From Buxus sempervirens (taxonomy: Eukaryota; Streptophyta; Magnoliopsida; Buxales; Buxaceae), in NCBI GenBank assembly GCA_947561395.2, contig OX387184.1, positions 35,268,766-35,332,765 on the forward strand: 64,000 nt of DNA, written 5' to 3'. The stretch's first letter is position 1. The number at the start of each line of letters is the position of its first letter. The notes beneath the pieces were generated by a model that was not told the DNA's origin, did no database searches, and saw nothing but the letters and a program-made list of their open reading frames with translations. A program made the position numbers and the translations under genes. Positions 23,846-59,535 of the stretch are shown piece by piece.

Positions 23846-23899
23846 ATGAGGGAATTTCCACTCAAAATCACCCTTTTAAGGAAAATTTTGAGGTAAATG

Positions 23900-25200
23900 T
23901 CATATAATTCCACCTAAAATTTTCATACTTTTTCTTCTTCTCACCATTTTTTCGCACACCACCAAACCCAACACCCCCCAACATGCAAACCCACCCCAAA
24001 ACATAAAAAACCAACCAACCCCACCAACTTAGAAAAAATTAATTTACAAATGTTTTGTGGATATAGAAAATTTATGTACACATTTTTCAAGGATTTGAAT
24101 CATATCAAAAGCTCAAGTTGAGGTGAATTTGGATATTTGGTTTTGTGAAGTTATTTGGCTTCTATTCTTGTTTTAATTTTGGATATCTTTGATTTACATC
24201 AATGATATCTTGTCATATTAGTTTACATATATGCCATGTGCATCCCTTTTCTCAAATGTTAGTACAATTTCTTATAATTGTCTATTATTTAGATCTTCAA
24301 AATTTCAAATTATAACTCAAATCACTTAGTCATAATTTCTTCCACACAATACACAACCATATTTGCCTGTATATGAAAGTTACTACATATGCATATTTCT
24401 CTTAGTCTTTTGTGGTTTTTAGGTATATTTTACTCTCACTTAAGCTTGTCTCTGAAAATCCCATACCCCCAATCTTAGATGTTCAAAATGCATTGGTCAA
24501 AATTTTAGGAAAGTCCTCAAAACCATATTTTTCTCATTTTCTCTAGTTTGATGCTTTATATTACTATTAGAATCATCCTGGAAGCCGAATGATGTTCATA
24601 AAACCTCAAAATTGGAAAATCTTGTTCTTATATTGAGGTTTTTGGGTTCTTTTATGGGGATATTTACTATTCCAAAAAGTTCGATCTTATCTATTAATTT
24701 TGTTTCTAAAGCACTTATGCACTTTATTTGCAAGTTATTTAACATGTGATTTAAGTGATCATTTTGTGGGATGGGTCAAATTTTTAATTTTGATGATAAT
24801 CAAATACAACATTATTAATTATTGATTAGTCATTCAAATTTGAGTTTAAATCACTTATTCATTTCATTCACAACCATTCGACCCACATAAAAATTTAGTG
24901 CAATATTTTAAAAACCTATTAAAAAATAATAAAGAATATTTAAATCATTAAAATGCTTTCCTAACATAGAGAAAGTGTTTCCAAGATATTTTTCTCAAAA
25001 TATTTTTGCCTCTGCAAAAGGCAAAATTTTTAATGCTTTGCATGCACCCAAGGAAGTGTTTTCAAGATAAATGTTGATTGCTTGTATTCAAGGATCAGTA
25101 TATATAAACAAGGTTCTATACTCAAATTAAGTTTAACATTACTGCCTAATTATATAGATCGAGCACACAAACTACATAAATTAATATGGGCAATTGATTT
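23900..25200. other. Intron, nothing recognised
   Basis: AT-rich sequence with no open frame of interest, no terminal repeats and no LINE-like motifs that I can see. Confidence 0.5.
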
Positions 25201-28950: not shown

Positions 28951-29301
28951 TTCCATAGGATTACCGCATCAGAGATACTGGGTATATGGCGTGGGTGGTG
29001 CCAGATGGATCCTGTGTCTAGGGGTCTATTGACGGGTTGTTTTGTTTCTATTTAGGAGGGATATGGGATTGTTACTCCATTCCTTTTCTTTTCTTTTTGT
29101 GAGCAGTGGATTTGGGTGATGACGGAATTGCTTGTTCCGTCACTTTCTTGTGTCATCATAGACGAGGAATCGGATTCGCAGTGGGTCTGTATAGGAGTGT
29201 GGTATCATATTTTGTTCACAGGCATACTTGTATATTTTCACTCATTATCAATATATAGCATATACCATCAATTATCAAAAAAAAAAAAGCAATGAGGTCC
29301 A

Positions 29302-29450
29302 AGTCTTTTCAAGACTCCAAATTGGACAACCAGAAAAGGATGAATCTGATGACTGACTGAAGGATGACTCTTTTTGGGCTGGAATAATCGTTGAAAATCC
29401 TTCCATAAAGCCCAAACAATAGCTGCAGGTGTAATATTCTATATAATTTA
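29302..29450 (-). mobile_element. Outer LINE, second part
   Basis: This continues the minus-strand LINE interrupted at 25430. It reads AAIVWALWKDF, then a diverged segment up to the insertion point. It ends indistinctly near 29450. Confidence 0.5.
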
Positions 29451-29739
29451 CTTCAGACCTGATCTTTTACTCCAACCCCAAGAACATGCAACTCATTGCA
29501 TTACAAGACATAAAGGGACATTGCAAAGGCCAAATGATGTGAATGGCTTGGACGTATATGATCACATCTTGTACAAATATATTATACTTTCTTATCTCCT
29601 TTTACTTTTCCTTTTCCTTTACAATCTATTTTGGTAGTGTAATAATGCTACTCCTTGTTTTTAGAAATATGCTTATTACTTAGTTTTAATTCAACTAATA
29701 TATTTATGTTTTCTTTAGGTTCAAATATGCCACTTGAGC

Positions 29740-30770
29740 TTGATATTGATTGACACCAAGGGACTGAAATTGAAGTAAATACCATGCACATTTTTTGTAA
29801 CTACTGTAAACAGATTAATGGGAAGGGATTTCTAGAATAAAAGATCTTGCTGATAAGAAATGCGATGTATAAGGATGCCATAAGGCCCCCAAAGAGGGAA
29901 TACGTGTTATGAAAAAACACCTTCAAAATAGTAGTAAAAAAGAAAAAGCAATTGCAAAGAGAGGAGCAAGTGCTAAATACTTTGGATGAGGAGCTTTATA
30001 TGAATGAGGCTCCCATAACAGCAATGAGGATATTAAGGAGCCTGAAGAAAGCAGATTGATTTTTCTAGGCAACGAAGTATAGACAAATGACATTAGATGT
30101 CATTCAATGTCAGCATAACCATCCTATTCAATGCCATTTGAGGATGAAAAATCCTCTTATGATCGTCAATATCTGCATTTGATACTATGATGGCACGTGG
30201 TACCAAAGAGGTTGGGTCACACATGGATTTGCCTGCACCTAGAGGGAGCCACTAAGATATACAAATTCTTTCACGTTCCACTGGATTCAAAACAGAAAAG
30301 ATTGAAAGACATTAAGTATGAAGTAGATTCATCGGGTTGGACGAGACTGTGTGAAATTTTTGCATATAATTTCATCCCATTAAATGTATCAAACACTCCA
30401 TATTTTCAGAGCATTGTAAAAAATTTTAAACAAGACTAGAGTCACAGGACCCAATGCAGCCACCCGATGACACTACCCTTCATGATGGTTTGCAATTTTT
30501 TGGAGCATGGGATTTTTTGGAGCATGACACTACCCTTCTCACATCCTCATCCCCAGCTGATCCATTATCCCTACACAAAACAATATCATTATCCACGGTA
30601 CTATCCCCAGCCACAACCATCAATTGAGTACTCCAGTAGTACAGTTGGACACTATGGATATCCAGGTCAGTATGTCCCTGGATCTAATAACTGCTCTAGG
30701 TTTCGAACATTAGGCTAATATGATACTCAAAGTAAGTTGAGTCAAGAAATACACATGGAAAGGAGCTTGT
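29740..30770 (+). pseudogene. hAT-family transposase relic
   Basis: Near 29790 the plus strand reads FCNYCKQINGKGF, a degenerate BED zinc finger (C-x2-C with following G). At 30197-30439 an 80-codon frame includes FIPLNVSNTPYFQSIV. That corresponds to the conserved 'IPFN.v.spyF..m' block after the zinc finger in plant hAT transposases. A Tyr/Pro-rich tail (30540-30720) resembles their C-terminal low-complexity regions. The catalytic core between these parts is missing, and stops and frameshifts are frequent. Confidence 0.6.
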
Positions 30771-33046: not shown

Positions 33047-34170
33047 TTTTTTTTTTGATCGGTAATGAAAAATTATATTAAAAAGAAGCTGAAAACAGAA
33101 TACATTGCTGTACACCAAAGGTGTACATAATCCTCATCCCCTCCCCATCCTCTACAAGTCATTGAAATCCTCACACATTAATACATCATGACATTTCAAT
33201 CCCTTACAAGATTCCACAGCAGATGCCCAATAAAGGATAAAACTAAGTGAGTATTTGAAAAGAGCATCCCGAGATCTTTCCTTATTCTCAAAGATCCTGT
33301 TATTTCGTTCCTTCCAAACTGCCCACATCACTGCCCCCGATGTTAGTCTCCAAAAGACCTTGAAAGGACAGTCTCCTTTTGAGATCTTCCAACATAAAAG
33401 AAGTTGAGAAACGTCTTTCGGCTGGACCCAAGCTACTCCAAATTTGGCTAAGAACTCATTCCAAACTCCACTTGTGATTGGGTAATGAATGAGGAGGTGA
33501 TTGACTAACTCCGCATCTGCTTTGCAAAGACTACATCTATTGGGAAGTTGCCATCCTCTCTTCATCAAATTATCCAAAGTCAAGATTTTCTCCAGCACCA
33601 CTGTCCACAAAAAGAAACCTACCTTTGATGGGAGTAAGGGTTGCCATAACAGATTATGGACCTTGAAATTGAGATTCCGCTGGCTTATAAACCCATACAG
33701 GCCCTTCACTGAGAAAACCCCATCACTGCTCCTTGACCAGCTCATGAAGTCTTAATGAGAATCAAAATCCTTCCCATTGATGCACTCCAGAAACTGGGAC
33801 AATCCTTCCAACTCCCAATCATACATACCTCTTCTAAACAGCAGATTCCATTGTGTGCCTCCCACTCCTTGGGAATACAGATTTGCAACAAAGGCATGTG
33901 GGGCTATGGATATACTATAAAACGTAGGATATTGATCCTTGAGAGCTCTACCAGAACACCAAGGATCCGACCAAAACTTAACCCTATCTCCCCTCCCCAC
34001 CTGAAACTTCACACCTGCCTTAACCAGGGGAGACAATCTGCATGTGGGCCTCCATAAGCTGCAACCGATTCTCCCATGCACTTGATCTGGAAGCCACCTT
34101 GTCTCATCATAGCCATACTTAACAACAATTAATTTCCTCCAAAGACTATTTACCTCTTGGCCAAACCTCC
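33047..34170 (-). mobile_element. L1 LINE, 3' part of ORF2
   Basis: Poly(T) at 33047-33056 is followed by gatcggtaatgaaaaatt, which marks the minus-strand 3' end. The coding part reads from 34170 leftward: an RFGQEVNSLW segment, GDRVKFWSDPWC, one in-frame TAA at 33752-33754, then VLEKILTLDNLMKRGWQLPN, CSLCKADAELVNHL and MWAVWKERNNRIF. The last zinc ligand of the C-C-H-C set appears changed to Tyr. Apart from the single stop the frame is open over about 330 codons. At 34170 it passes without a gap into the pararetroviral promoter copy. Confidence 0.85.
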
Positions 34171-34293
34171 AAGGCAGGGGACTTCTATATAAAGGACACT
34201 CCCGTAGGAGGAGAGGAAAAAAGACTTGTTTTGGTGCTTAAGCTTGCTTAAAGCAGTAATGTCCCTTCTTTCAGGAGTTTTCTCCTTCTTTAG
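34170..34293 (+). promoter_or_regulatory. Pararetroviral promoter copy A
   Basis: The TATA box ttctatataaagg lies at 34182-34194. The following cactcccgtaggagg and gcttgcttaaagca-gta-atgtcccttctttcagg match promoter copy B (43865-44000) closely. Similarity begins at ccaaggcagg (34170) and ends at ctttag (34293). Nothing recognisable is driven by it now; a foreign GC-rich element follows. Confidence 0.75.
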
Positions 34294-35525
34294 TTGCTCA
34301 AGGCCCAGGCGTGGTGTCGCCTAGGCGAGTTGTGCCTAGGCGACCTAGGCGACAGCCTAGGCTATCGCCCGACCGACTATTCGCCTGGGCGAGCAAACCA
34401 AAAGGAGAAATGAAGAAGAAACAGAAACAAAGACAAGCTTCTCTTCCATCGTCTTCGTTGAGATCCATCGTCTTCGTCGAGCTTCGTTGAGCCGCAAGGT
34501 ATGTCTTCTTACTCTTCTCCTCTTCTTCTTCGTCGAGCTTCATCACTGTCTTTTTTTTTTCCTCTTCTTCTCCAATGAACAGAGCAACTAGAATAATCGC
34601 GCTCTCGTTCTCTCTTTCGCTCTTGCTCTCTTTCTTTGTGCTCTCTCTATATCTCACTCTCTCTCTTGCTCTCTCTCTCTCTCGCCTTTCTTTCCCTGTC
34701 GCTCTCTCTCTGTCTCGCTCTCTCTTTCCCTGTCGCTCTCTCTCTCTCTTTCTCGCCTCTCTCTCTATCGCTCTCTCGCCTCTCTCTCTCTTGCTTCTCT
34801 TTCTCTGTTGCTCTCTCTCTCTCTCGCCTCTCTTTCTCTGTCGCTCTCTCTCTTTCTCGCTTCTCTGTCTCTCTCTCTATCTCACCTCTCTTTCAATACA
34901 GAAGACACTACCGTCATGTTTTGGTTGAAGAAATAGAGGAAGAAAGGGGAATAAGATTGAAAAATCTTCCCATGACCTCTATGCTTACCTGTAAGTTTTG
35001 GTTCTTTCCCACCCACTCCATTTGTTAGATTTACCCACTCTCCATTAGACATTAAAGATCTCGTTAACCCCTTCAACTTATAAATTTGATTCATATTCAA
35101 ATTCATTGGGTCCTTGTCATCATTAATTTCTTACTGTGTTTTAGTTGCTAATTTCTAGCTAGTCATAGGACTTCCGTTGCAGTTGCTAAATCTCCTTCAG
35201 CAGAGAATACTCAAATATTGATAATGATCATTGTTCTTGTTGGCATTGCAAAATGCGACTCCTTCAGATATTGTTTTTTATTGTTTTTCTTCTCTAAAAT
35301 CTGTACTATTTTTTATTACTTAATAAAAGTGTTTGGTGTTTGTCTATTTGAAGAAATAGCATATAGACCTTTTGAAACTTTATATCCTTTTGATACTTCC
35401 ATCTACAATGGATGATGAACATATTTTGAAATGAAAAAATTGTTGCCTAGGCAACCGCCTAGGCGGTCGCCTAGGCTACAGGCAGGTCTATCGCCTGGCA
35501 TCGCCTAGGCGTTTTCACAACTATG
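34294..35525. mobile_element. Element with CCTAGGCG-rich inverted ends
   Basis: Comparison with the other leader copies shows this 1.2-kb segment is foreign. Its left end (TAGTTGCTCAAGGCCCAGGCG, counting the shared TAG) and the complement of its right end (TAGTTGTGAAAACGCCTAGG) are related. Both ends contain several copies of gcctaggcg within about 90 bases. The interior has a CT-rich tract (34600-34900). I infer a non-autonomous DNA transposon of hAT type. The leader sequence that should flank it (44001-45133 in copy B) is absent, so insertion was accompanied by deletion. Leu/Ser-rich frames here are repeat artefacts. Confidence 0.45.
34600..34900. repeat. CT-rich microsatellite tract
   Basis: About 300 bases of ctct with interspersed cgc/ctgtcg words. 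It generates long Leu/Ser-rich open frames in two phases, which I do not regard as genes. Confidence 0.85.
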
Positions 35526-35627
35526 GTACTGAGTTTGCATGTTTGATCTATTACGGTTTTGTGTGTTACTATGGGCAAACCCAACCCATAGCCCCAGTTA
35601 CCCCAAGTCGAGATGCATATATGAAAC

Positions 35628-36441: not shown

Positions 36442-38049
36442 GGTGGCGTTTGGTGGGCATTATAGAATCTGGATTAAGATTCTAATCCCAGATTCTATAA
36501 CTCAGATTATATTTCCTCGATTTTAGAAAACCAAAATCCTATTTGGATGAGTTGGATTGTAAACTCAGATTTTTAAATTAGAATTTGGAATCTTGTTTGG
36601 TTGCCACTAATTATTGATATTAAATTTGGAGTTTTTTATTAAAAATTACATAAAAATAATATAATATATATATATAGAAAAATTAAATTCGTATTTACAT
36701 ATATATTATTACGTGACATGTATATTTTTATATAATATATAAATTTATATATAACATTATAATAATATAATAATATTATATAATAATATGATAATAATAT
36801 TATTTATATTATGTACTACAATAACACTACTATTATTTTAATAATATATATTATATATTATTATTATATATTATATGATATTATAAATATTATATAATAT
36901 ATATAATAATACTATAGTATTATAGTTTAGAATATAATATTATAATAATATTATGTATATTATAATATAAACTATATTATAATTTATATTATAACTTATT
37001 ATAATATATAATTTTATAATAATATAATTTATGTTTATTATAACTCAAACTTTATGTATATTACATATAATATTATAATAAATTTATTGTAACACTAAAT
37101 TTAATAAAATATAATATATTATAATATTAAATTTGCTAAATATATTAATATATATTATTATGTTAATATTAATATAATACTAAATTTGAATATTATTATA
37201 TTAAATATATATATGTATATAATATGTTTATTGTAAGAATATAATATTATTAATATTAATATATCAATTTGTTTAAAATATATAATATATTAATATGTTT
37301 CAGATTATTATATACTAATATAATATTATAATATATAATATTATTATAATAATACTATAGTATAATTAATGTTTGTTATATTATAATTTATAAAATATTA
37401 TTATATTAAATATAATATATTTATTATAATATTAAATTTATTACAATATATTAAATTTATTATGATATTATGTTTATAATATCATAATAAATTTATTATA
37501 TTATAATATTATTATATTTTATGATATAATAATATGTTTATTATTATAATAATAATATAATATTATTATAATGTAATATAAGTTATATTATAATTTGTTG
37601 TTATTAAAATAATATATTATAATAATAATAATTATTTATAATGTACATTATATTGAAATTTATAATTTATTCTATATTATTATATATAATATAATAATGA
37701 TATTTATATTAATAATATTTATATTACATGTAATATAATTTAATATTGTATTATCAATTATATATCATAAACAGAATATATTATATTATAATACTTATAA
37801 TGTTATTATTTATTATAATATGTTTTATATAATATGTCATACATAATCTCTAGAATCACAGGTTTTGGAAATATAAGCACCAATATCCATAATCCTTATA
37901 ATCACCAAAAAAGGAGATACTGATTATGGGCTTGATTATACAACCGGATAGTAGAATCCGGCCTTAAAATCCCAACCAAACACACCTTTTGGATTATGGA
38001 ATCGGATTCTTCTAGAATCCCGATTCTATAATGCCCACCAAACGCCCCC
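36442..38049. mobile_element. PIF/Harbinger (Tourist-like) non-autonomous element, 1608 bp
   Basis: The terminal inverted repeats are about 28 bp. The left is ggtggcgtttggtgggcatt... and the right, complemented, gggggcgtttggtgggcatt..., with one mismatch over 28. The 3-bp duplication TAA flanks it (36439-36441, 38050-38052). Copies B and C of the host repeat have the empty site with a single TAA. The GG-GGCGTTTGG-type tip and TAA duplication fit PIF/Harbinger. The interior (about 36600-37850) is almost entirely A and T, with no gene. Confidence 0.88.
36600..37850. repeat. Extremely AT-rich tract inside the Harbinger-like element
   Basis: About 1.25 kb consists almost only of A and T, mainly shuffled ATAAT/TATTA words with few G or C. 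It is the expanded interior of the non-autonomous element and shows no unit repeat of constant length. Confidence 0.85.
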
Positions 38050-38249
38050 TAAGCGTATGTCTGATACCTCTCTATTATGTACAGTGAGCCATCTAACAAT
38101 GCCTAAGTCCTGGATGTTGTATCCCTTAATCCACTCATTTAGTGTTATTGGTGTTATTGTGATCGTAACCTGACGATACTCCAGGTTACGATTATGATAG
38201 GGTTCATGGAAGATTCTCCTTTTGATGCCTTGAAGTGCTTGTTTCCTCT

Positions 38250-39653
38250 TTAGGGGCTTCTCATGGATTCTGCCGTTGATTCCTCATCAAGCCGTTCTCT
38301 TGCCTTCATCATATTTGGAGTCCAGCTGAAGTAGAAATCAGAACTGTAAAAGGGGGTAAAATCACTGTTTCTGTATTCACGGACTTGGAGGAGATGCCTA
38401 TCTGCCCATTGCATTGTTTCTTCCATAGAAGGAGGATACTGAGATACCTGTGAAAAACTCTGTTCTGCTGGAGGGACCGCTGGAGTATACCATCTTGTTT
38501 TGTAGGACCTATACAACTGATAATTCTTCTTTCGGGCCCTCATCTCATAAGTCCACTTCAAGATCCATGGGCATTCTTGTTTCCATAAGTGAAAGATCAT
38601 TTTGTGACTGGGATAAGCAGTAGGGTCCATTATCTTACCAGAAGATATTTCTTTGGCTATGTCCATTGGTAGTCCATCTTCTGTAATCCCGAATTTCGGT
38701 CACTAGTATTCTTCAAACCAGAGTGGTCTTGTTCCATAATTAAAGGTTCTTCCTAGGATGATAAACCATGTATGGGTCCTGGCAAAGTTTTCAACATGAA
38801 AGGCCTCAAAGAAAGCAGCCCTGTATTTTAGATAGTTCATGGAAATTCCTCTGATGTTGCGGGTCTCAAGCATCGTCTTTGTGTGGTATCTGCTTACCCA
38901 GTGTCTCCAACATAAGACCCTTTTGAGAATAAGTATAGAGTGGGCAATCTCATCTTCTGCATTCTGATGAATCTTGATGTAAGCGGAATCTGTTGCCCTT
39001 AAGATTTGATGAGCAAGCTTCCAATCAATAAGACTTTTTTCTCCTTGAAAGTTCATTCTGCCAAGCAATTGATCGGCAATTTGCCAAGGGGATTGATCCA
39101 ATGGTTCAGGAAGGGAAGAAAGAACCAAATCTCCCATGGGAGTTTCACAATAATAGTGGATAGACCTTGGTGATGGTCTTTCTGGGGAATCTGGAGGACT
39201 AGTCAACACTCCGACGAAGGGTTTGGGCCTTGAGGATGGAAAGTTTTGTTGAAGGAAAGGAAAGATGAAGGACTCTTCATTGTATTGTCCAGAGAAATGC
39301 TTAGAAGAGAAAGTAAATGACTCAATGAGATTCAAAAAAGGTCTTCCCAGAATAACATCGTATTCTAGATGTTCAAATAAAAGGTAGTCAAGAGATAGAA
39401 GGGGACCACCTTGGGGTTAGGTCTTTATAGCAACAGCTTGGAAGGTTGAGGAGGTAGGGATACCGTTTATCCCGTGTAGTCGTTTTCCCTTAGGAGTTCT
39501 CTCAACAGAGGGGACGAGTCTCTGTTTTAGGCAATTGTAATCTGCTCCAGTATCTAGGAGTGCAAAGGTTTCCACATGTAAATTCTGGGATATGAGGGTG
39601 AGCCTGATAACATACCTTTGCGTTACTCCGGAGAATGATCCCACAAAACTCAT
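38250..39653 (-). pseudogene. Pararetrovirus-like aspartic protease and unrecognised downstream region
   Basis: Read from 39653 leftward in one frame, the sequence gives a retroviral-type aspartic protease: the catalytic LLDTGADYNCL (39565-39535) and the conserved YDVILGRPFL (39370-39340) near its end. An in-frame TAA at 39417-39419 splits it. The frame then continues for about 350 codons through two adjacent stops at 38700-38705 to a final TAA at 38250. This downstream part is Trp/Tyr-rich (SLIDWKLAHQILRATDS, YGTRPLWFEEY, MIFHLWKQECPWILKW) and shows none of the reverse-transcriptase motifs (no YxDD box) that normally follow protease in Caulimoviridae. I do not recognise it. Confidence 0.7.
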
Positions 39654-39698
39654 TGGGGTATCTATTTCATCATCAGAAGAGGAATAAGGGCAGTCCTG

Positions 39699-40238
39699 TC
39701 AATGCTCAAGAATCCATACTCGTTCTTGCAACATTAGAATTTGATCTTGCAGTCCTTTGATTGAGCTATGGAACTCATTCTTAGTAAAGGGTTGGTTACC
39801 CTTAATATGCCTTTCTGTGAGAGCACCAATTTCCTTCATTTGAACATAATGCTTCGAATCAAAAAGTGCTTCCTTCCCTTTTGCTAGCACCATGCCAATT
39901 ATGGCATATCCGGACGAGGAGTCTGAATCGGAACTTTGTTCTGTCTCCGGTTTGGTTTCATATGACTGCATCATTCTTTCTTGGCATTCTACACATGCAC
40001 CTTCTTCTCCCGGGGCACAAGAGGAACAAGGGGGATGTTCATCCTCCTGTTCAAGCATATGAACCTGCTTGTCAGGACATTCCTTAGGGATGTGACCAGG
40101 CTTGCGGCATTTGTAGCATAGGCATGAGGATTTATGAGGCTGCCTTAGTTTCGGCCGTGGCTTGGAATGCTTTGGCTCCTTACGTTCCTTTTTCTTCTTG
40201 GGCCGCTTCTTGCATACCTTCGTACAATAACGCTCCAT
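39699..40238 (-). pseudogene. Pararetrovirus-like zinc-knuckle (nucleocapsid) segment
   Basis: The 179-codon frame begins with a basic Lys/Arg-rich stretch. It then has the CCHC knuckle CYKCRKPGHIPKEC (near 40110-40070), followed by a second Cys-rich patch (CSSC, C-V-E-C) and an acidic Glu/Ser/Asp segment. Coat proteins of Caulimoviridae end in a basic region and such a knuckle, directly before protease, as here. It is in frame with the protease at 39653, separated by one TGA (39699-39701). A frameshift near 40235 separates it from the coat core. Confidence 0.75.
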
Positions 40239-40386
40239 GCCCAGCTGTTCGCGTATGTCTCATCTTTTGCCTTTCACGAGCACAATACTCAGCAAGTTCT
40301 TTATCCACTAAAGCAAATAGATTACCATAAGAGACAGACTAGAGGTCCTGGGGACTAATCTTTTCTATGATAAGATCCAAGAAGCC

Positions 40387-40875
40387 CTAGGGAAGTCCTG
40401 CAATAAACTTTTCCTTCCAGAAAGTGGTAAGGGGATTTTCTACTTTGAAGATACGAGACATCCAGATCGGCTTGTACCAGTTGTAGTCTTGCAGAGTAGA
40501 AATCTTCAGGTTCATGAGGATGGTCTGATGTCGCCAAGAGACAAAGAGATCATCACCACAAAAGTGCAACCAAATGGTAGAGAGAAGAACAGCTGCCGAG
40601 TTGTAAACTGTTTATGAATCAACCTCCAATTCATTGCTCGCGGTTCTTCTAGTAGACCAGTATAGTTGTACCTTTACTTCATCTGGGACTGCATTGAACC
40701 ACCATTCTTGCAAGGTGCCAATGAAGCCTTGTGTGAGTATATTAAAGGCGTCTTGTTGATTTCCGCCTTTAAGTATAATAGCGCCCTCCATCATACACTC
40801 TTCCCCATATGATGCTGTATTCTTACAAGCTGATTTCCAAGGAGACCAAATAGTTCCGAAGAAGCTTGAAAGCAA
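40387..40875 (-). pseudogene. Pararetrovirus-like coat protein core
   Basis: Two minus-strand stretches in the same frame (40612-40875 and 40387-40569), separated by one stop, give GFIGTLQEWW and then DYNWYKP and FWKEKFIAGLP. The GF.G.L..WW and FWKEKFI.GLP motifs are characteristic of Caulimoviridae coat proteins and distantly of Ty3 gag. The N-terminal part is missing. At about 40800-40875 the frame meets the oppositely oriented exonuclease-bearing gene. The open frame at 40612-40875 has no ATG start and is the middle of a gene. Confidence 0.7.
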
Positions 40876-40879
40876 AGAA

Positions 40880-41299
40880 GTGACCTATACAAGGTCATGG
40901 TCTCCTCCATACAAGCCTAAAGCATCTACAGCAGCACCAGAGAAGCCTCGGTACTCTATCACAGGGGATGGTCGAGATGCCGTGCAGTTAAATTTCAAAA
41001 GCACCTCAATGCGAGATTCTTATCAAGCTTCCTTTCCTTCTTCTCGGCAGCACATCTGCATGGTCCTAAAGACTGAACCTTCTCAGAACAAGGACATATG
41101 TTTCCATAGCCAGTCATGTGGAGATCCTGCATGCCATCAAGAGCCTTGTTATGTCCCTGTCTGTCAACATTGCTGGTTTGGAAATGCTTTCCAGAAGGTT
41201 AAAGGTGGGCTTCTTAAGGATCCCTACGTCCGTGAAGTTTGTGAAAATTATTGGGAAGATCCACGAAGACAATTCTGGTTGGAGAATGTCCCAGATTAA
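40880..41299 (+). pseudogene. Upstream part of the exonuclease-bearing gene: Cys/His-rich segment
   Basis: The 139-codon frame (open from about 40760, no ATG) contains YTRSWSPPYKP. It then has a dense Cys/His cluster, CFHSQSCGDPACHQEPC and CQHCW, which looks like a metal-binding knuckle of no family I can name. It ends in ENYWEDPRRQFWLENV. The coding frame passes to the next reading frame between 41251 and 41299 (frameshift). Its codon use and amino acid composition resemble those of the following open frames, so I treat them as one broken gene. Confidence 0.55.
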
Positions 41300-41772
41300 A
41301 AGGGACAAGAATACAAGAATTCTACAGGGATTGCTGGTTATATGCTCTTTGGAAGAAAGAAAAGCCATGCCATGAACCATGTGACTTTTTCGAGTTCTTA
41401 GATAAGGTCCTTGGCCCAGCCGTCCTCCAGCCTCCACAAGAACCGGAGTATGTCTCAAAGCAAGAGTCACCGGAGACAGCAGATTCGTCTCCCAGAATCC
41501 CACTGAGCCAATTAATGGAAGATGTCAATTGCATTTGCCAGTTACATGAGCAAGTGAGACAGTGCCTGGCAATTTACCCTGAGGATTTTCTCGAATATGC
41601 TCGGCAAGATCCGTCTGGGGCAGAACTCTCAGATGCTATCCTGAATAGCAACCTTGCTCCAGTCAAGACTCAGTTTTATGAAATTGACGAAATAATTAAA
41701 GAGTTTGCTAATGATATCGAAGCCTACTTCTCATCTAAAGGGTCCGAATCACCAGAAAGAAAGATCTGGTAG
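41251..41772 (+). pseudogene. Middle part of the exonuclease-bearing gene
   Basis: The 173-codon frame includes EFYRDCWLYALWKKEKP and an acidic helical stretch (LMEDVNCICQLHEQVRQCL, YEIDEIIKEFANDI). It ends at a TAG (41770-41772), and the same frame reopens immediately and continues to 43041. I do not recognise a domain. The acidic, Ser/Glu/Pro-rich composition suggests a linker. Confidence 0.5.
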
Positions 41773-41805
41773 GAAATTGAAGATATCAGGCAAGAAGTTC
41801 AAAGT

Positions 41806-43041
41806 ATGAATATGAGGCTTGTCACACAACCAGAAGATCAGGAAGACAGCCTACAAGAAGTCCAAGATGAGGAATCAATTGGGTTTACAAAAACCCAGAA
41901 CGATGAATTGATTGAGTACCTTGAAGTCCCTGAAATCTCAGAAATTGATCCACCTTCCAAAGATCTTATAGCTGTTGCCTCTACCTATCCTCTTCCCTCA
42001 CAGGTAGAAATTTCTAGCCAATCCTTTGTTCATACTTCTGATAGTCTGCATTATAACCTTCTCTATCAGCAAGCTAACTGGATAAACATTGCTCTGATCT
42101 CTTTAGACCAAAAGTTTGTTCCATATTCTTTTGTGAATATTTTGAAAATCCAAATTGACTCATTTGGATTGTACAGGCGATCCTATGAGCAAAACCTTTG
42201 TTCTTCTCTCCTAAGCCTGGATATCCCAAATAAAGATTCTTCTCCATCTTCATCTCTTGCCTCTTCATATTCTCATTTTCGACCAACTGTGGTTGATCTT
42301 CGGAATCCAAAGCACCAAAAGAAATCTGCTTGCCAAATTTGTGTCAATACCTCTCCTCCTCTTCCCACAAATTTCAGGGGGTGTAAAGAATGGTCTTCCA
42401 AACCACCAAATAATTGTTGTCCCCTGATTGCAACTCTCACAGATTATCCCATCTACAAGAAAGAGTTAATCAGGAAGACAGTTTGGGGAGAATTCAGAGA
42501 ACTTTGCGAAGGTAATATCAGATATGTTGACTCTTTTGACTCTGAAGAGTTTCAACAGTTTGAAAAGGCAATTCAAGGAGCAGTTCTCATTGCCATTGAT
42601 TCAGAATGGTCACAGTATAAGATTGAAGAATTTGTGGTTAACAAACCTTCTCTCCTGCAAATCGGAGTTTACAACTTCGAATCTTATTATCATGATAGAC
42701 TCATGGTCTTCGTACTTGATTTACTAGTTCTACCAGATGTGTATATCTGCAGGATCCTCGATGCCATATTCTCAGATTCTAGGATTTTAAAGATTGGTTT
42801 TCAGTTCCACCATGACATCAAGGTGCTTGTTCAAGCCTACGAAGGAATTCTGAAGAATAAGTTTGTGCACTCGTACATCAACATCTCCAATGTCTATCAG
42901 GATATGATTACGGGAGAATGGGAATTTCAAGGTCCAGTTATAGGTCTTTCAAAGATCTGTAGCAGCATCCTCAACCTTGAAATGTCTAAACATCTGCAGA
43001 TAGTGAATAGAGTTAGCGCTCAATATCCTTTGCTCGAGTGA
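41806..43041 (+). pseudogene. DEDD-type 3'-5' exonuclease (RNase D/Mut-7/WRN-like) in a pararetrovirus-like element
   Basis: This is the longest open frame of the window (411 codons). Residues 1-60 are acidic, and 60-240 are a Ser/Pro/Cys linker with a CQIC...C...CC patch. From about 255 to the end lies an exonuclease fold. Motif I is VLIAIDSEW (Asp265, Glu267, at 42598-42606). It is followed by PSLLQIGVY and VFVLDLLVLPD. Motif II is ILKIGFQFHHD (Asp337, 42814-42816), then GLSKICSSIL. This order is that of the DnaQ/DEDD superfamily, closest to the RNase D/Mut-7/WRN type. The frame ends at TGA 43039-43041, but motif III follows in a shifted frame. The gene has no introns, unlike host members, and sits 830 bp upstream of a viral-type promoter. 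Function in the element is unknown. Confidence 0.68.
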
Positions 43042-43558
43042 AGTATGCCGCTGAGAACGCTTACTATGTTGCCAAGGTATTTGAAAAATACTTGTTCAAG
43101 GACTTGGGAAGCAAGTCGTGGGAATTCCTAACTTCATTTATGAAACCTTTGAACAAAAGGCTCTTCACTATTTTCTAGTCGAATCAGCAAAAAAGGTTCT
43201 TGCTGATTATTGTTTCCCAAGGTATAGGGGTAAAATTGGGCCCCCTGGTCTTCTGTCAAGAAAAGGGAAACCCATTGCCATGATCTGCCAAAGCATCTCA
43301 AGCAAAATCCAAGGATGCAGAACATGCAGCAAGTCTGAAAAATTCTGCCAGGAACATTTTATACAAGAAATGGGCAGACAACAAATGAAATCATCTTTAC
43401 TGGAAGCAGGCCTTTGAAGGATTGAACAATCTACATCCAATGAAGACAACAAATGAAAGTCTGGAAAAAGGCCCAAGTCCGATTAAGAGCTTCAAGATGA
43501 CTTGCAGAAAGAAGCAGCACACAATTCTGGACTATCATAGCGGATCAGCCCATGGTGG
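43042..43558 (+). pseudogene. Frameshifted C-terminal part of the exonuclease-bearing gene
   Basis: Starting at 43038 in the next frame, the sequence reads VKYAAENAYYVAKVFEKYL, the third exonuclease motif (Y-A-A-x-D-A-Y in the family). Here Asn stands where the catalytic Asp is expected. A TAG at about 43176 follows. Further coding-like stretches in two frames (DYCFPRYRGKIGPPGLL at 43208, Lys/Ala-rich segments at 43285-43400) extend to a stop near 43558. The C-terminus is therefore broken by at least two frameshifts and two stops. Confidence 0.5.
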
Positions 43559-43639
43559 ATAGTTCGCAAGAAAGCCTAAGGTCCACAAGGTTGCTTGATC
43601 TACAAGATTACTTGGAGAGAAAGCAACGATCTTTGCCCA

Positions 43640-44000
43640 AAAGCAAAGATTCCAAAAGTCTCTACTTTATGTATGTGTCTACTTTATATAAAAGCAAAGG
43701 AATATATTCCCTACTAGTGTGTCAGTAGGTGTCAGTAGGAAAAGCTGGGATGCCAGCTATGGTTGTAATAAAGGTATTCACTTTCGGTGGATACTGTGTC
43801 AGGTGGGGATGCCCACTGTGTGTCCTGTAGTGGTGAAGCCTTAACGCTTAAGGAAGGACCAAGGCAGGAGACCTCTATATAAGGGATACTCCCGTAGGAG
43901 AAGGGGAGGAGGAAGAACTTGTTCTAAGAAAAACTTGTTTGTGCTAAAGCTTGCTTAAAGCACTAGTGTCCCTTCTTTCAGGAGTTTTCTCCTTCTTTAG
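43640..44000 (+). promoter_or_regulatory. Pararetroviral pregenomic promoter copy B
   Basis: The TATA box cctctatataaggg (43872-43885) is flanked by aaggcaggaga and actcccgtaggag. This arrangement strongly resembles the 35S-type promoter of Caulimoviridae (ctatataagg followed by a purine-rich start region). Upstream are gtcagtagg repeats (43720-43740) and a second TATA-like tttatataaaagc (43684). The aagcttgcttaaagca element at 43956 is shared with copy A. The exonuclease-bearing gene ends just upstream, as the last gene of a circular viral map would. Confidence 0.75.
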
Positions 44001-44280
44001 GGTCACCTCCTAGCCTAGGTTCGAAGGAGTGTTCCCAAGCCACCCCCCCGGCTTGGTGGGTTCATCAAAGTCGGTGATTAGTCCAATCACCTGAGTCTTT
44101 ATCTTTCTTGAGTCCTTTTAATGTTTCTTGAGTCTAGTATGCTTGTTTTCGAGTCTGTAATTTAATTTCTGGTTTTCAGTTCTGTTTTTACAAGTATGTT
44201 TAATAATAGTATGTTTTTCATGTTCTTTCCATCTTCTTTGTATAGCTTCTCCACTTACTTCTTCTTTACAAGAAAAATCA

Positions 44281-44286
44281 AATAAA
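44281..44286 (+). terminator. Poly(A) signal in the viral leader
   Basis: AATAAA lies about 400 bases downstream of the TATA box. In Caulimoviridae a poly(A) signal downstream of the start site, in the leader, ends the terminally redundant pregenomic RNA. Confidence 0.5.
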
Positions 44287-44378
44287 AAGTTTTGTTTCTT
44301 TTTCCTGTTTATGTTCCTTCAAGAAAAAGAAAAAAGATTTTTCGTTTCTTTGAGTCTTTGAGTCCTTTGTTCGAGTCT

Positions 44379-45826
44379 TGCATTCTGTCTACCTAAATCC
44401 ATGTGTCCAGACCTCCATTAGAGCCATTAAGAACCACAGGTCCCAGGTTTAGATGTCATTAGGTCCCTTGTAATGGTGTGAACCAGCGATGTACCGCGAA
44501 GGTGTCTCTGTTGGTTGACGGTCTTGCTTGTCACTAGGAAGCCTCAGATGGGAGCAGGAGACTGCTTGTGAGTAACCATAAGTAGGGTAAATGAAGCCGA
44601 AACAGCCGCAAAGCCGTGAGATGTGTGAAAAGGAGCCAAAGGCCTAAGTATGGCGTAGTGAATCCGAGAAAGGCAGATCTGTAAGAGTCGAGTGTGACTC
44701 ATAGGAGGCCAGTAGTGACATCAAAGCCCATGCTTTCCGAGTTTGAACCCTATCTGGTATTAGAGCCATAAGCCAACCTTGTACACCGTAGAGTAGATGA
44801 TCTACCCCAACCTATCCATCTTTCTATTCTCATTTGGAGAAGACAACAATGACGGTACATATCTCTTAACTTTGTTGTTTTGAGCTCTATGGAGTTGAAT
44901 TGCGTTCATCCATTAAGGTGAGTTTGCTCTTCCCTCACCCGGAGAAGATAATGATGACGGTACATGTCTCTGTCACTTATGTGTGATGAGCTTCATGTAA
45001 TTGTATTCTTATCACTTTGGTGAGACAAATCTTATCCCTTAGTTAGGTGTGTCCATTTAATGTGTCTTTTGTCTTTTCTAGGAAAACCTATATGGAGAAA
45101 AGCATCCAATGGTAAGTACACCTTTTATGTGAGCAGTACTGAGTTTGCATGTTTTATCTGTTGCGGTTTTATGTGTTACTATAGGTAGACCCAACCCATG
45201 GCCCCAGTTACCCGAAGTCGGAATGCATCTATAAAACACCAGCAACGCTAAACGTATGTCTGATACCTCTCTGTTATGTACAGTGAGCCATCTTACAACG
45301 CCTAAGTCCTGGATGTTGTATCCCTTAATCCACCATTTTAGTGTTATTAGTATTTTTGTGATCATAACCTGGCGATCGCGTCGTGCATACATCATCATGT
45401 CTTAGTTTTGTGTTGTGTTGACCCAGTCAAACCCTGTGTTTTGTGTTGTGTTGTGTTGACCCAGTCAAACCCTGTGTTGAACCTGTTTATCTTTTTACCC
45501 CACTTGCATGTCTTTTCATTTTATCATTTTACTATATTTATTATTCACATGTCTTAGTTTTACAAAATCCAAAAAACATTTATTGTCTTTATTAGTCGTC
45601 TTATAGTTGTCATGTACTTATTTTTACTTTTATTTTACTTTTCTGTCCTGTTGAACCCGAAAGCAGGGGAGATGGTAAGATGAACAGTACTCCGACAACG
45701 ATGGCTAGATAAGCACACCATACGAGTACAACCACATGCATACTTTTGTCCAACTTACCAACTTGCATTTACCTCGAGTTGCAATCATTGACCACCTTGT
45801 TCTTGTTTTGACTGTTTTGTCCTATT
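44379..45826 (+). repeat. Left arm of a 1.4-kb inverted repeat (viral leader, copy B)
   Basis: The arm is inverted relative to 46023-47451. Matching phrases include tgcattctg, ccatgtgtccag, gaaccacaggtcccaggttt, ggagcaggaga, ctatctggtat, ggagaaaagcatccaatgg, ctaagtcctggatgttgtat and tacctcgagttg, in the same order from outside to inside. Similarity stops sharply outside 44379. The arm contains the tRNA-Met primer-binding site and many short ATG frames, as expected for a pararetroviral leader, but no long ORF. Confidence 0.85.
44755..44767 (+). other. tRNA-Met primer-binding site, plus copy
   Basis: TGGTATTAGAGCC differs by one base from TGGTATCAGAGCC, the complement of the 3' end of plant initiator tRNA-Met used to prime minus-strand synthesis in Caulimoviridae and many LTR elements. 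It lies about 880 bases downstream of the TATA box. Confidence 0.75.
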
Positions 45827-45831
45827 TACTT

Positions 45832-45975
45832 TTACCCAGATCCAGCATTGTCATCTCCATCATCATTTTCCTCTTCATTGTACTCACCAAGATAGTATTC
45901 ATCTGATCCTGATAGTACAACTTCCTCCTCTAAGGGATCATCTTCATCATCATCTGCATCGTCACTTTCCTCCAT
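45832..45975 (-). CDS. Short very acidic ORF (47 codons) in the spacer of the inverted repeat
   Basis: The minus-strand frame opens with ATG at 45975, starts MEESDDADDDEDD and ends at TAA (45832-45834). Nearly half of its residues are Asp or Glu. It fills the unique spacer between the arms almost exactly. A pyrimidine-rich tract ending in ACAAG precedes the ATG. It may be the start of a viral gene (acidic N-terminal regions occur in Caulimoviridae coat proteins) or a chance low-complexity frame from ATC/TTC repeats. Confidence 0.3.
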   Translation of the reverse strand: MEESDDADDDEDDPLEEEVVLSGSDEYYLGEYNEEENDDGDDNAGSG

Positions 45976-46022
45976 CTTGTAAGGGTAGTGGTTAGAAATT
46001 CAAGGTAAGAAACACATTTACG

Positions 46023-47451
46023 AATGGGACAAAATAGTCAAGACAAGAAGAAGGCAATCAAAAGTTTTCAACTCGAGGTAAATGTAAGTTGTAAAAGAGT
46101 TAGGACAAAGTATGCAAGTTGTTGTACTCGTATGGTGTGCTAATCTAGCCGTCGTCGTCGGAGTACTGTTCACCTTAACATCCCCCCTGCTTTTAGGTTC
46201 AACAGGACACAAAAGTAAAATAAAAGTAAAATAAAAGTAAAAATAAGTACATGACAACTATAAGACAACTAATAAAGACAATAAATGTTTTTTGGATTTT
46301 GTAAAACTAAGACATGTGAATAATAAATGTAGTAGAAGGATAAAATGAAAAGACATGCAATTGGAGTAAAAAGATAAACAGGTTTAACACAAGGTTTGAC
46401 TGGGTCAATACAAAACGCAATGTTTGACTGGGTCAAACATGATGATGTATGTACGACGCGATCGCCAGGTTACGATCACAAAAATACTAATAACACTAAA
46501 ATGGTGGATTAAGGGATACAACATCTAAGACTTAAGCGTTGTAAGATGGCTCACTCTACATAACAGAGAAGTATCAGACATACGCTTAGCGTTGCTGGTG
46601 TTTCATAGATGCATCCCGACTTCGGGTAACTGGGGCTATGGGTTGGGTCTACCCATAGTAACACACAAAACCGCAACAGATAAAACATGCAAACCGCTCA
46701 TATAAGAGGTGTACTTACCGTTGGATGCTTTTCTCCATATAGGTTTTCCTAGAAAAGACAAAAGACACATTAAATGGACACACCTAACTAAGGGATAAGA
46801 TTTGTCTCACCAAAGTGATAAGAATACAACTCCATGAAGCTCATCACACATAAGTGACAGAGACATGTACCGTCATCATTATCTTCTCCGGGTGAGGGAA
46901 GGGCAAACTCACCTTAATGGATGAACACAGTTCAACTCCATAGAGCTCAAAACAACAAAGTTAAGAGATATGTACCGTCATTATCGTTTTCTCCAGATGA
47001 GAATAGAAGAATGGACAGGTTAGGGTAGATCATCTACTCTACAGTGTACAAGATTGGCTTATGGCTCTGATACCAGATAGGGTTCACACTCGGAAAGCAT
47101 GGGCTTTGATGTCACTACTGGCCTCCTATGAGTCACACTAGACCCTTACAGATCTACCTTTCTCCGGTTCACTACGCCATACTTAGGCCTTTGGCGCCTT
47201 TTCACACACTTCACGGCTTTGCAGCTGTTTCGGCTTCATTTCCCCTACTTATGGCTACTCACAAGCAATCTCCTGCTCCCATCTGAGGCTTCCTAGTGAC
47301 AAGCAAGACAGTCAACCAACAGAGACACCTTTGTGGTACATCGCCAGTTCACATCACTACGAGGGACCTAATGACTTCTAAACCTGGGACCTGTGGTTCC
47401 TAATGGCTCTAATGGAGGTCTGGACACATGGATCTGAGTAAACAGAATGCA
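46023..47451 (-). repeat. Right arm of the inverted repeat (viral leader, copy C)
   Basis: This is the complement of 44379-45826, with scattered substitutions and small indels. It ends at aacagaatgca (47441-47451), opposite tgcattctg of the left arm. The spacer between the arms is only about 196 bp, so the two arms would form a very long hairpin if transcribed or extruded. Confidence 0.85.
47063..47075 (-). other. tRNA-Met primer-binding site, minus copy
   Basis: The plus strand reads ggctctgatacca, so the minus strand reads TGGTATCAGAGCC, a perfect match to the usual tRNA-Met primer-binding site. It is the inverted counterpart of 44755-44767. Confidence 0.8.
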
Positions 47452-48228
47452 GGATTTCCTTATTTGTTCTTGATGTGCAGATATGTTGTCAAGGTATGCC
47501 TAAGTTTTGATCTTATCTTACTTAACAACTTGGAATATGATCTACTGCGAGGAACTCCATATCTGGCTACAGTCCTTATCAGATAACCCCCAAGGGTATC
47601 CAAGGACAACTTCAAGGAGTTCCAATCCACCTTCCGTTCATTTAAGCTTGCTTAAATTACAATTGTAATTTAAAATAAGTTAACTAAAATAAATTATTTA
47701 ATAACAATAAAAGAATGGAAAAATAACGCAAATTAATTAAAAATTGTAATAATTTTGGAAAAGAATAAAAATTAATTTCAAAATTGGATGATTATATTTA
47801 AATAAATTTTTAATAAAAACGTACAAAATAATATTAAATTAATTTTAAAATTTTATGAAATTAAATTACATGGAAAAAAGGAAAATATTTGTGGGTAAAA
47901 AATTTGTAAAATTACTCATGCTATTATTTATTTAGTAATGTTTACAAAAACTATAATATTAAAACAAATTTTAAAAATTGCTGAATTATTCGAAGTAAGT
48001 AAGAAGGATAGTTGCTTAGCTATTTATGATATAATTTACTTTGCAATCTATAAATTTTGAATGATATTCAAAATGATTAAGTTCCTGATATGTTTTTTGC
48101 TAAGTTGTTGCATTTTTCTTTTTTTTTCCTATTGTCCAAGTCTATATCAATCATGTTGTGATTGTCTGTGGATTGTCTGTGAGTAGCTGATTGTCTACGG
48201 ATTGTCTGTGAGTAGCAAATAGTAGTAT
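47452..48228. other. Right flank of the viral complex and AT-rich intron
   Basis: 47452-47650 is not part of the inverted repeat and is not recognised. It ends with tttaagcttgcttaaatt, sharing aagcttgcttaaa with both promoter copies. From 47655 the sequence is AT-rich intron without features. Confidence 0.4.
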
Positions 48229-58930: not shown

Positions 58931-59078
58931 AGCAGGTTTTAGTCAACTGACATAGTAACGTAAAGAAACTCACTTCTTGCAAAACAAGCAACTTATGCTA
59001 CTATGGAAGATAATGAGATCATACATAGAACTTTTGCAAACTACTTTTCTATTTAGAAGGAAAAACCCTTGGTAGTGA

Positions 59079-59535
59079 TGTAACGCCCCACTCCCTCGCA
59101 ACGATATTGTCCTCTTTAGCCCATCAGGCCTCACAGGTTTGCTCTTGGGTTTTATCCCTGAGGGAGTCACAAGCCTACATATATAAACCTTCACCTTCCT
59201 CTCTGCAAGCAATGTAGGATCCGGGATCTCACAATCCACCACCCTAACGGTTGCATATCCCCGTGCAGTAGCCTGCCAACCCACTAACTTGAGCCCGCCG
59301 AAATGTACCAAACCAACTTTTGGGTCCCACATTTCCGGTTGGAGTCCAACTCTAATACCATTCTGCAAGTCCATGATCCCACCCACAACGATATTGTCCG
59401 CTTTGGCCCATTGAGCCTCACGATTTTGCTCTTGGGTTTTACCCCAAAAGGCCTCGTTGCTTGAGGGAATCACAAGCCTACATATATAGACCTTCACATT
59501 ACCTCTCTAAGCAATATGGGATCCAAGATTTCTAG
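59079..59535 (-). mobile_element. Complete TRIM (short LTR retrotransposon), 457 bp
   Basis: Two direct repeats, 59079-59233 and 59374-59535, share caacgatattgtcc, tttgctcttgggtttta, cacaagcctacatatata and the gatcc-agat end; these are the LTRs. A perfect 5-bp duplication, AGTGA, flanks the whole (59074-59078 and 59536-59540). Between them the minus strand has TGGTATTAGAG (complement of 59350-59360), a tRNA-Met primer-binding site just after the 5' LTR, so the element is in minus orientation. The internal region is only 140 bp and noncoding. The LTR wording (gatccca-cat..., gacaatatcgtt, ggggcgttaca) is that of a widespread plant TRIM family. Confidence 0.88.

What the first reader, a model, noticed from the sequence alone, without database searches (positions are those of the whole stretch)
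40760..43870. A 3'-5' exonuclease gene embedded in a pararetrovirus-like element
Seen: a plus-strand gene with a DnaQ/DEDD exonuclease domain (IDSEW motif I, ILKIGFQFHHD motif II, YAAENAY motif III). It directly precedes a 35S-like promoter, poly(A) signal and tRNA-Met primer-binding site, and lies head-to-head with a coat/zinc-knuckle/protease gene. Known: I recall no Caulimoviridae member encoding an RNase D/Mut-7-like exonuclease; their usual enzymes are protease, reverse transcriptase and RNase H. Inference: this family either captured a host exonuclease, or a processed copy of a host gene was joined to viral fragments. The former would be a new viral accessory function, for example RNA decay or silencing interference. 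The Cys/His-rich N-terminal part gives no family I know.
Basis: partly seen in the sequence, partly recalled or inferred. Interest (0 to 1): 0.88.

Follow-up and report, generated by a model that had tools for sequence, protein, structure and literature searches.

The report
Exonuclease segment of a split pararetrovirus
A plant genome carries decayed copies of an unrecognised reverse-transcribing plant virus that seems to have divided its genes over three DNA circles, one of which pairs the virus's movement protein with a 3'-5' exonuclease, an enzyme I know from no other such virus.

Summary
The exonuclease is real: PF01612 matches window 41773-43038 at 8.5e-10 and another copy in the same genome at 2.1e-20. 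It is viral. Exonuclease hits fall at 13 places in the window's genome. At 8 of 13 the same intergenic region follows on the same strand; at 5 of 13 a caulimovirid movement protein (MP) domain, whole or part, precedes. Exonuclease-domain dN/dS is at most 0.20 in 24 of 28 pairs; shifted frames give 0.66-2.92. One copy is a whole circle of about 5.74 kb: MP, Cys/His segment, exonuclease. The same region follows a coat/protease unit and a protease/RT/RNase H unit, and unit types mix in its tree. Coat-unit relatives fall at 10 places, none in the long frames that hold coat and RT together. I read this as one component of a tripartite, florendovirus-like pararetrovirus. Bipartite ones are known; my searches found no tripartite one and no exonuclease gene in the family. 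The window's head-to-head pair joins two components, and its exonuclease copy is dead. Function is inferred: small-RNA trimming or 3'-end processing.

The parts
40784..41299 (+). Cys/His-rich segment that follows the MP domain in the MP reading frame of other copies; the MP domain itself is cut off here
   Evidence: tblastn to MP ORF L009:8038-9300 residues 266-421, 82%; PF01107 lies at residues 101-260 of that ORF
41245..41772 (+). Middle segment, same frame as the exonuclease, one in-frame TAG between them here
   Evidence: both lie in one open frame at L013:7128-8711
41773..43041 (+). Exonuclease ORF, motifs I and II; PF01612 at about 42535-43014
   Evidence: PF01612 8.5e-10; 13 places in G000
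43044..43175 (+). Motif III (YAAENAY) in another frame; N where 6 of 7 better copies have D
43085..43559 (+). C-terminal part of the exonuclease protein, spread over two frames
   Evidence: tblastn to L012:2306-3994 residues 402-563
43767..43772 (+). AATAAA, in 9 of 11 intergenic pieces covering it, from all three unit types
   Evidence: alignment
43876..43882 (+). TATA box, in 12 of 12 intergenic pieces covering it, from all three unit types
   Evidence: alignment
43560..44375 (+). Shared intergenic region: promoter and start of leader
   Evidence: found after exonuclease, coat and RT units
44755..44767 (+). tRNA-Met primer-binding site, 1 mismatch
   Evidence: with at most 1 mismatch in 8 of 11 loci scanned
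44376..47454 (.). Leader and post-leader region as an inverted repeat
   Evidence: self-blastn, 87%
38250..40780 (-). Fragment of the coat component: DUF7746 piece, zinc knuckle, protease (DTG), ORF2-like domain
   Evidence: 71-89% to L016; in the coat search 72-83%
38023..38177 (+). Leader fragment (matches 45228-45376) at the left end of the viral block
36730..37753 (.). TA-rich repeat flanking the viral block, up to 95% AT in 300 bases

Best explanation
The window holds a decayed, rearranged insertion of a florendovirus-like pararetrovirus whose genome was divided over three DNA circles that share one promoter/leader region: (1) RT component (N-terminal segment, protease, RT, RNase H); (2) coat component (N-terminal segment, DUF7746, coat protein, zinc knuckle, protease, probably an ORF2-like domain); (3) movement component (MP, Cys/His segment, exonuclease). 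The exonuclease is a DEDDy 3'-5' exonuclease at the C-terminus of the MP reading frame, kept under purifying selection while the virus circulated. Shown here: gene content, linkage, shared regulatory region, selection, catalytic residues in the better copies. Inferred: that the three circles formed one virus; that protease from components 1 and 2 cuts the MP-exonuclease protein in trans; and the role. Role, by my estimate: trimming or degrading small-RNA 3' ends to blunt silencing (about 0.45); 3'-end processing or proofreading for reverse transcription (about 0.3); another role (0.25).
For: PF01612 in the window and, over profile positions 6-167, in one open 563-codon frame at L012 (2.1e-20). 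Exonuclease at 13 places (20 rows, all 23 candidates scored), followed in order and strand by the shared intergenic region at 8 of 13. MP domain by Pfam at L009, L010, L011; by similarity whole at L017 and in part at L019. L011 is one circle opened in the intergenic region, about 5.74 kb. Coat unit L016 lies between two intergenic regions 5745 bases apart. RT-RNase H is followed by the region within about 120-175 bases at L019 and L045. Coat class: 20 of 116 rows (58-100%) at 10 places, longest open frame 561 codons; the other 96 rows (26-43%) include the long frames with RT. RT-unit N-terminal segment: 5 rows at 5 places, 17 of 17 candidates scored. DTG active site in the window and L016 coat units and in the L019 RT unit. 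All three pairs of unit types are found next to each other: exo-coat (window, L015/L016), exo-RT (L019), RT-coat (C11, about 5 kb apart by coordinates). Intergenic identity across unit types up to 95.5%. Tree: {L013 exo, L015 exo, L016 coat, L045 RT} 100. dN/dS and control.
Against: No RT component was seen complete to its 5' end. Every copy is degraded. No second species could be searched. Beyond the one clade, RT and exonuclease intergenic regions reach only 82-87%. The L044 piece in the tree is inverted relative to its RT gene and may belong to a neighbour; L044's own 200-base piece is nearest to L021 (75.6%) and L017 (74.3%). The nodes inside the good clade are weak (54-89). The ORF2 likeness of the coat unit is weak: hits in 1 of 19 loci and in L016, and none by phmmer. 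L011, with a stretch read out of frame, gives dN/dS up to 0.54. L044 and L045 proteases have lost the DTG. Activity, silencing effect and substrate are untested.
Confidence: 0.77

Rival explanations
1. The MP-exonuclease circle is a satellite or helper-dependent element that borrowed the promoter region of a bipartite (coat + RT) florendovirus-like virus, not an essential component.
For: It encodes no coat, protease or RT. The numbers of places are not equal: 13 exonuclease, 10 coat, 5 RT-segment.
Against: It carries the only MP domain found in this group: the N-terminal frames of the coat unit L016 and of the RT unit L024 gave no MP hit. One clade holds all three unit types. Purifying selection is strong.
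Confidence: 0.12
2. The units are broken pieces of one larger monopartite virus that encoded all genes.
For: All copies are fragmentary and rearranged, and joined fragments are common at such loci.
Against: L011 and L016 are each bounded by the intergenic region. MP, middle segment and exonuclease are in one frame in L009 and, up to its truncation, L010. None of the 20 coat-class rows lies in a frame over 561 codons, while plain relatives hold MP, coat, protease and RT in one long frame, for example 1864 codons at L026.
Confidence: 0.05
3. The exonuclease is simply ORF2 of an ordinary florendovirus, whose fold had been missed.
For: It lies where ORF2 lies, just before the intergenic region, and its ORF is of similar size to the 45-58 kDa reported (PMC4241990 section 6).
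Against: ORF2-position frames of three florendovirus-like copies here (413 codons, cut at the locus edge) give no Pfam hit; 19 such loci give no tblastn hit to the exonuclease. The weak ORF2 likeness in this group is in the coat unit.
Confidence: 0.03
4. A host exonuclease gene or processed copy happens to lie next to viral fragments.
For: The genome has other PF01612 genes (13 of 20 rows are not these viral copies).
Against: The same linkage at 8 of 13 places; 16-21% identity to seven host ORFs, against 72-83% between L012 and five other viral copies.
Confidence: 0.02

Closest known systems
Bipartite florendoviruses (Vitis vinifera B and D viruses, Oryza sativa B virus, Sorghum bicolor virus; Geering et al. 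2014, PMC4241990)
   Same: Divided genome known from endogenous copies; components share the intergenic region; one has coat and protease and no RT, another has RT; sizes 5.5-6.9 kb; compound insertions (section 7)
   Different: There MP is on the coat component (component B), and the sections read (6 and 7) describe no third component and no exonuclease. Here MP sits with an exonuclease on its own circle
Monopartite florendoviruses
   Same: RT 46-59% identical to most florendovirus-like rows of this genome; MP 28-36%; coat 26-43%
   Different: Genes divided over circles, exonuclease added. I call those rows florendovirus-like from ORF1 length, domain order and an ORF2 behind it, not from a tree
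Mut-7 / RNase D / RRP6 and NrnC exonucleases (PF01612)
   Same: Motifs IDSEW, HHD, YxxxD; E 5e-7 to Mut-7 homologue 7jw2 over residues 212-402, 6e-8 to NrnC over the C-terminal part only
   Different: Viral setting, fusion to MP and Cys/His segments, no relative found in the protein collection
Wollendovirus WolV1 (Vassilieff et al. 2026, PMC13308828)
   Same: Caulimovirid with an extra 568-aa ORF of unknown function
   Different: Polyprotein with MP, CP, AP, RT and RH in one genome; that ORF could not be compared (abstract and passages seen)

Membership tests
DEDDy 3'-5' exonuclease (PF01612) | Profile match over the domain | tested here: met
   Window 39.1 bits, cut-off 23.6; L012 73.7 bits, positions 6-167
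DEDDy 3'-5' exonuclease (PF01612) | Catalytic D-E, D, and Y-x3-D | tested here: met
   By eye: motif I 9 of 11 copies aligned there, motif II 7 of 10, motif III 6 of 9 (old remnants L022, L023 counted as misses; L020 ends before motif II, L011 is out of frame at III). Window copy: motif III has N and lies in another frame
DEDDy 3'-5' exonuclease (PF01612) | Fold and activity | not testable with these tools
Caulimoviridae | 30K movement protein | tested here: met
   PF01107 6.5e-18, 2.1e-18, 4.8e-13 at L009, L010, L011
Caulimoviridae | Coat protein with CxCx2Cx4Hx4C knuckle | tested here: met
   Window sequence CLCYKCRKPGHIPKEC (motif recalled); in L016 zf-CCHC 4.3e-8, PF22909 coat domain 6e-4, below its cut-off
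Caulimoviridae | Protease, RT, RNase H, no integrase | tested here: met
   L019 RT unit: RVT_1 1.2e-32, RNase H 3.8e-11; protease by similarity, DTG present; no integrase among the Pfam hits of the unit frames scanned
Caulimoviridae | tRNA-Met primer-binding site | tested here: met
   At most 1 mismatch in 8 of 11 loci scanned, 2 in L013, none in L016 and L021
Florendovirus genus | AP-RT-RH phylogeny inside the florendovirus clade | not tested
   Named reference sequences were not at hand; RT about 50% to florendovirus-like rows only
Florendovirus genus | ORF2 of 45-58 kDa | tested here: inconclusive
   A weak ORF2-like match (26-29%) at the end of the coat unit, not seen by phmmer
Divided (multipartite) florendovirus | Intergenic identity over 90% between components | tested here: met
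   In one clade: 95.5% exo-coat (669 columns), 94.9% RT-coat (235), 90.6-91.2% RT-exo (363); the RT unit L019 reaches 87.1%
Divided (multipartite) florendovirus | Components complementary, each able to stand as its own circle | tested here: inconclusive
   Shown for exonuclease (L011) and coat (L016) units; no RT unit was seen whole

The most novel reading that the evidence does not exclude
A lineage of reverse-transcribing DNA viruses with a tripartite genome whose components share no gene but protease, in which a dedicated circle encodes a movement protein fused to a 3'-5' exonuclease: a pararetrovirus with its own exonuclease, for counter-silencing or RT end-processing.
Probability: 0.72. 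Interest if true: 0.9.

Novelty: new variant of a known kind. Interest (0 to 1): 0.84.

Why it matters
Divided genomes among reverse-transcribing viruses rest on a few bipartite florendoviruses. A third component with complementary genes would show that the process went further, and it can be tested in genome data. An exonuclease would add an enzyme to a family whose core set is given as protease, RT and RNase H (PMC13308828, passage). Surveys that start from known domains lose or truncate RT-less components, as the CAULIFINDER authors say of component B (PMC9719215, passages), so more such components may lie unseen.

Tried and rejected
Rejected: chance host gene; ORF2 identity; monopartite virus (see rivals). 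Homologues: none in the protein collection, none in IMG/VR, no phage match. PHROGs and NCBIfam gave no convincing hit; an AcrID1 match (E 0.03) was taken as chance. Leader fold z -0.76 against 20 shuffles, so not more structured than chance. No Rfam match up to E 0.5. The exonuclease remnants L022 and L023 sit beside an integrase-bearing retrotransposon and a LINE; taken as chance neighbours. No family tree of the exonuclease was built, because cellular reference sequences were too few.

Rows dropped: alignment pieces under 55% identity were dropped and 28 pairs of 8 copies used (L019 and L020 left out). In the tree, 11 of 13 intergenic pieces were used (two partial L011 pieces dropped), 10 of 13 (the inverted L044 piece dropped too). 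In one search, 15 of 16 stretches exist. The searches scored 72 of 8906, 99 of 206 and 121 of 220 candidates, so their counts are lower bounds; searches scored all.
Full report
Observation. The gene is there. The stop-to-stop frame 41773-43041 (422 codons) is longer than any in 200 shuffles of 38250-44400 (maximum 249). It matches PF01612 at 8.5e-10. Motif III lies in another frame (43044) and has N for D. The gene is therefore broken in the window.

Copies. The window's genome (G000, 676.5 Mb, 247 contigs) was searched with the protein: 20 rows, which I group into 13 places, 34-78% identity outside the window. I fetched the surroundings of all 13. The order exonuclease, C-terminal part, then the shared intergenic region on the same strand is seen at 8 of 13: window, L009, L011, L012, L013, L015, L017 and, degraded, L021. 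The other five are cut-off copies (L010, L019, L020) or old remnants (L022, L023) without that region behind them.

MP. Upstream of the Cys/His segment lies a viral MP domain (PF01107): L009 6.5e-18, L010 2.1e-18, L011 4.8e-13; by similarity it is whole at L017 and partial at L019, so 5 of 13. In the window the copy begins at residue 266 of that frame, just past the MP domain. In L009 MP, middle segment and exonuclease are in one frame; in L010 too, up to its truncation; in the others frames are broken. A genome search with the MP frame gave 100 rows (99 of 206 candidates scored): 20 rows at 59-100%, and 80 rows at 28-36%, six of these in open frames of 1856-1911 codons. Some of the 20 lie where no exonuclease was listed (C3:22.87 Mb, C1:4.77 Mb).

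Whole unit. In L011 the intergenic region appears left of the leader (query positions 402-958) and right of the exonuclease (1-395), so the copy is one circle opened inside that region, about 5.74 kb. No coat or protease piece was found in it, and leader, MP, Cys/His, middle and exonuclease parts leave no room for an RT.

Coat unit. L016, next to the L015 exonuclease unit, has leader, N-terminal segment, DUF7746, coat protein, zinc knuckle, protease and an ORF2-like end, then the same intergenic region; repeat distance 5745 bases, with a deletion in its leader. The window's minus-strand gene is a fragment of this unit type (71-89% to L016), joined to the exonuclease unit at about 40780. After many unanswered tries, the coat search gave 116 rows (121 of 220 candidates scored): 20 rows at 58-100%, which I group into 10 places, none in an open frame over 561 codons; 96 rows at 26-43%, among them the long frames that also hold RT. 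The ORF2 likeness is weak (25.6% and 28.7%, single-locus E 5e-5 and 3e-4); phmmer between the same pieces gave none.

RT unit. L019 has a 613-codon frame with RVT_1 1.2e-32 and RNase H, followed by the intergenic region after about 115 bases; L045 likewise after about 175 bases; L044 has only a short piece of it, 500 bases on. These three places are the 5 rows at 61-100% among 75 rows; the rest are 40-59% (72 of 8906 candidates scored). Pfam found neither MP nor coat in the segment before the protease. That segment has relatives at 5 places, 17 of 17 candidates scored. DTG is present in the proteases of the window, L016 and L019 and lost in L044 and L045.

Neighbourhood. Exonuclease and coat units adjoin in the window and at L015/L016; exonuclease and RT units at L019; RT and coat at C11 (RT at 23196-24530, coat at 29254-30172).

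Co-evolution. Intergenic identity: L015 exonuclease to L016 coat 95.5% (669 columns), L045 RT to L016 coat 94.9% (235), L045 RT to L013 and L015 exonuclease 91.2 and 90.6% (363). Between exonuclease units the values run from 61.7 to 91.7%, with 95.8% for the neighbours L011 and L012; the window's unit has 79.4% to L015 and 89.6% to L009. The tree of 11 pieces puts {L013, L015, L016 coat, L045 RT} together at 100, again at 100 without the L044 piece. The pair {L021 exonuclease, L044} at 97 rests on a piece that is inverted relative to the L044 RT gene and may belong to a neighbour; the RT gene's own short piece is 91% to that piece and nearest to L021 and L017, so a second mixed clade is likely but not secure. 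The authors of the bipartite case used over 90% identity there as a criterion (PMC4241990 section 7). One clade meets it.

Selection. Exonuclease-domain dN/dS over 28 pairs of 8 copies: 24 at 0.20 or less, the others 0.26, 0.32, 0.32, 0.54. Frame-shift control: eight in-frame values 0.08-0.54, sixteen shifted values 0.66-2.92. The three highest in-frame values involve L011, part of which was read out of frame. Catalytic residues by eye: motif I 9 of 11, motif II 7 of 10, motif III 6 of 9, all misses in decayed copies or old remnants, the window among them for motif III. I infer that the gene worked in the virus and decayed after insertion.

Relatives. With L012's frame as query the best solved structures are NrnC (6e-8, C-terminal part), Mut-7 homologue (5e-7, residues 212-402) and RRP6 (9e-4). 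PF01612 in this genome: 20 rows, 7 of them viral copies. Seven host ORFs are 16-21% identical. A host exon on C19 (L057) resembles the viral motif III most, by eye; the rest of that gene could not be fetched. So a capture, if from a plant, is old.

Mechanism. [quoted passage not shown] A viral relative might trim or destroy small RNAs. Alternatively it could trim 3' ends or proofread for the RT. Neither was tested. Protease on the two other components could cut the MP-exonuclease protein in trans (inference).

Literature. Searches in the held library: caulimovirid with exonuclease (10 of 11 listed, 15 of 16), pararetrovirus with RNase D or 3-5 exonuclease, tripartite or multipartite pararetrovirus (15 of 182 listed), florendovirus with bipartite, florendovirus and related names (30 of 49). 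Passages were read in PMC13308828, PMC5766536, PMC10377300, PMC9719215, PMC11281623, PMC6135502 and PMC10458927, and sections 6 and 7 with passages of PMC4241990. What I read describes no exonuclease gene and no third component; the exonucleases in PMC11281623 and PMC6135502 are laboratory reagents. The other listed papers were seen as listings only. Most subscription papers and all preprints are missing from the library.

Window locus. A TA-rich tract (36730-37753) flanks the viral block, as reported for insertion of such elements (PMC10377300, passage); among 15 loci scanned only the window and L019 reach 94% AT in 300 bases.

Odds. The first raises and the second lowers the case; I moved the main reading from 0.74 to 0.77, the monopartite rival from 0.07 to 0.05, the satellite rival from 0.13 to 0.12 and the novel case from 0.70 to 0.72.

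Noticed in passing
34169-34293 and 35526-35627: A LINE-rich stretch holds the TATA box and leader start (as 43859-44000) and, beyond an inserted transposon-like element, a piece of the post-leader region (as 45136-45237). In one of two equivalent placements the missing part starts with GT and ends with AG, so this may be a trace of a spliced or deleted leader.
   Followed up: partly
L026, L029, L035, L037, L038, L042 and others: Florendovirus-like frames in G000 are in part open over more than 1,800 codons without stops, with an ORF2 behind them, which suggests recent insertion.
   Followed up: no
44376-47454; L010 274-1767: Inverted leader pairs with different centres at two loci.
   Followed up: partly
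L024 3647-4681 and L016 1889-2803: The N-terminal segments of RT and coat units match neither each other nor MP; no family found apart from DUF7746 in the coat unit.
   Followed up: partly
58970-59506: Minus-strand 178-codon open frame with an internal repeat, not identified.
   Followed up: no
34609-34891: Long TC-rich tract inside the transposon-like element.
   Followed up: no
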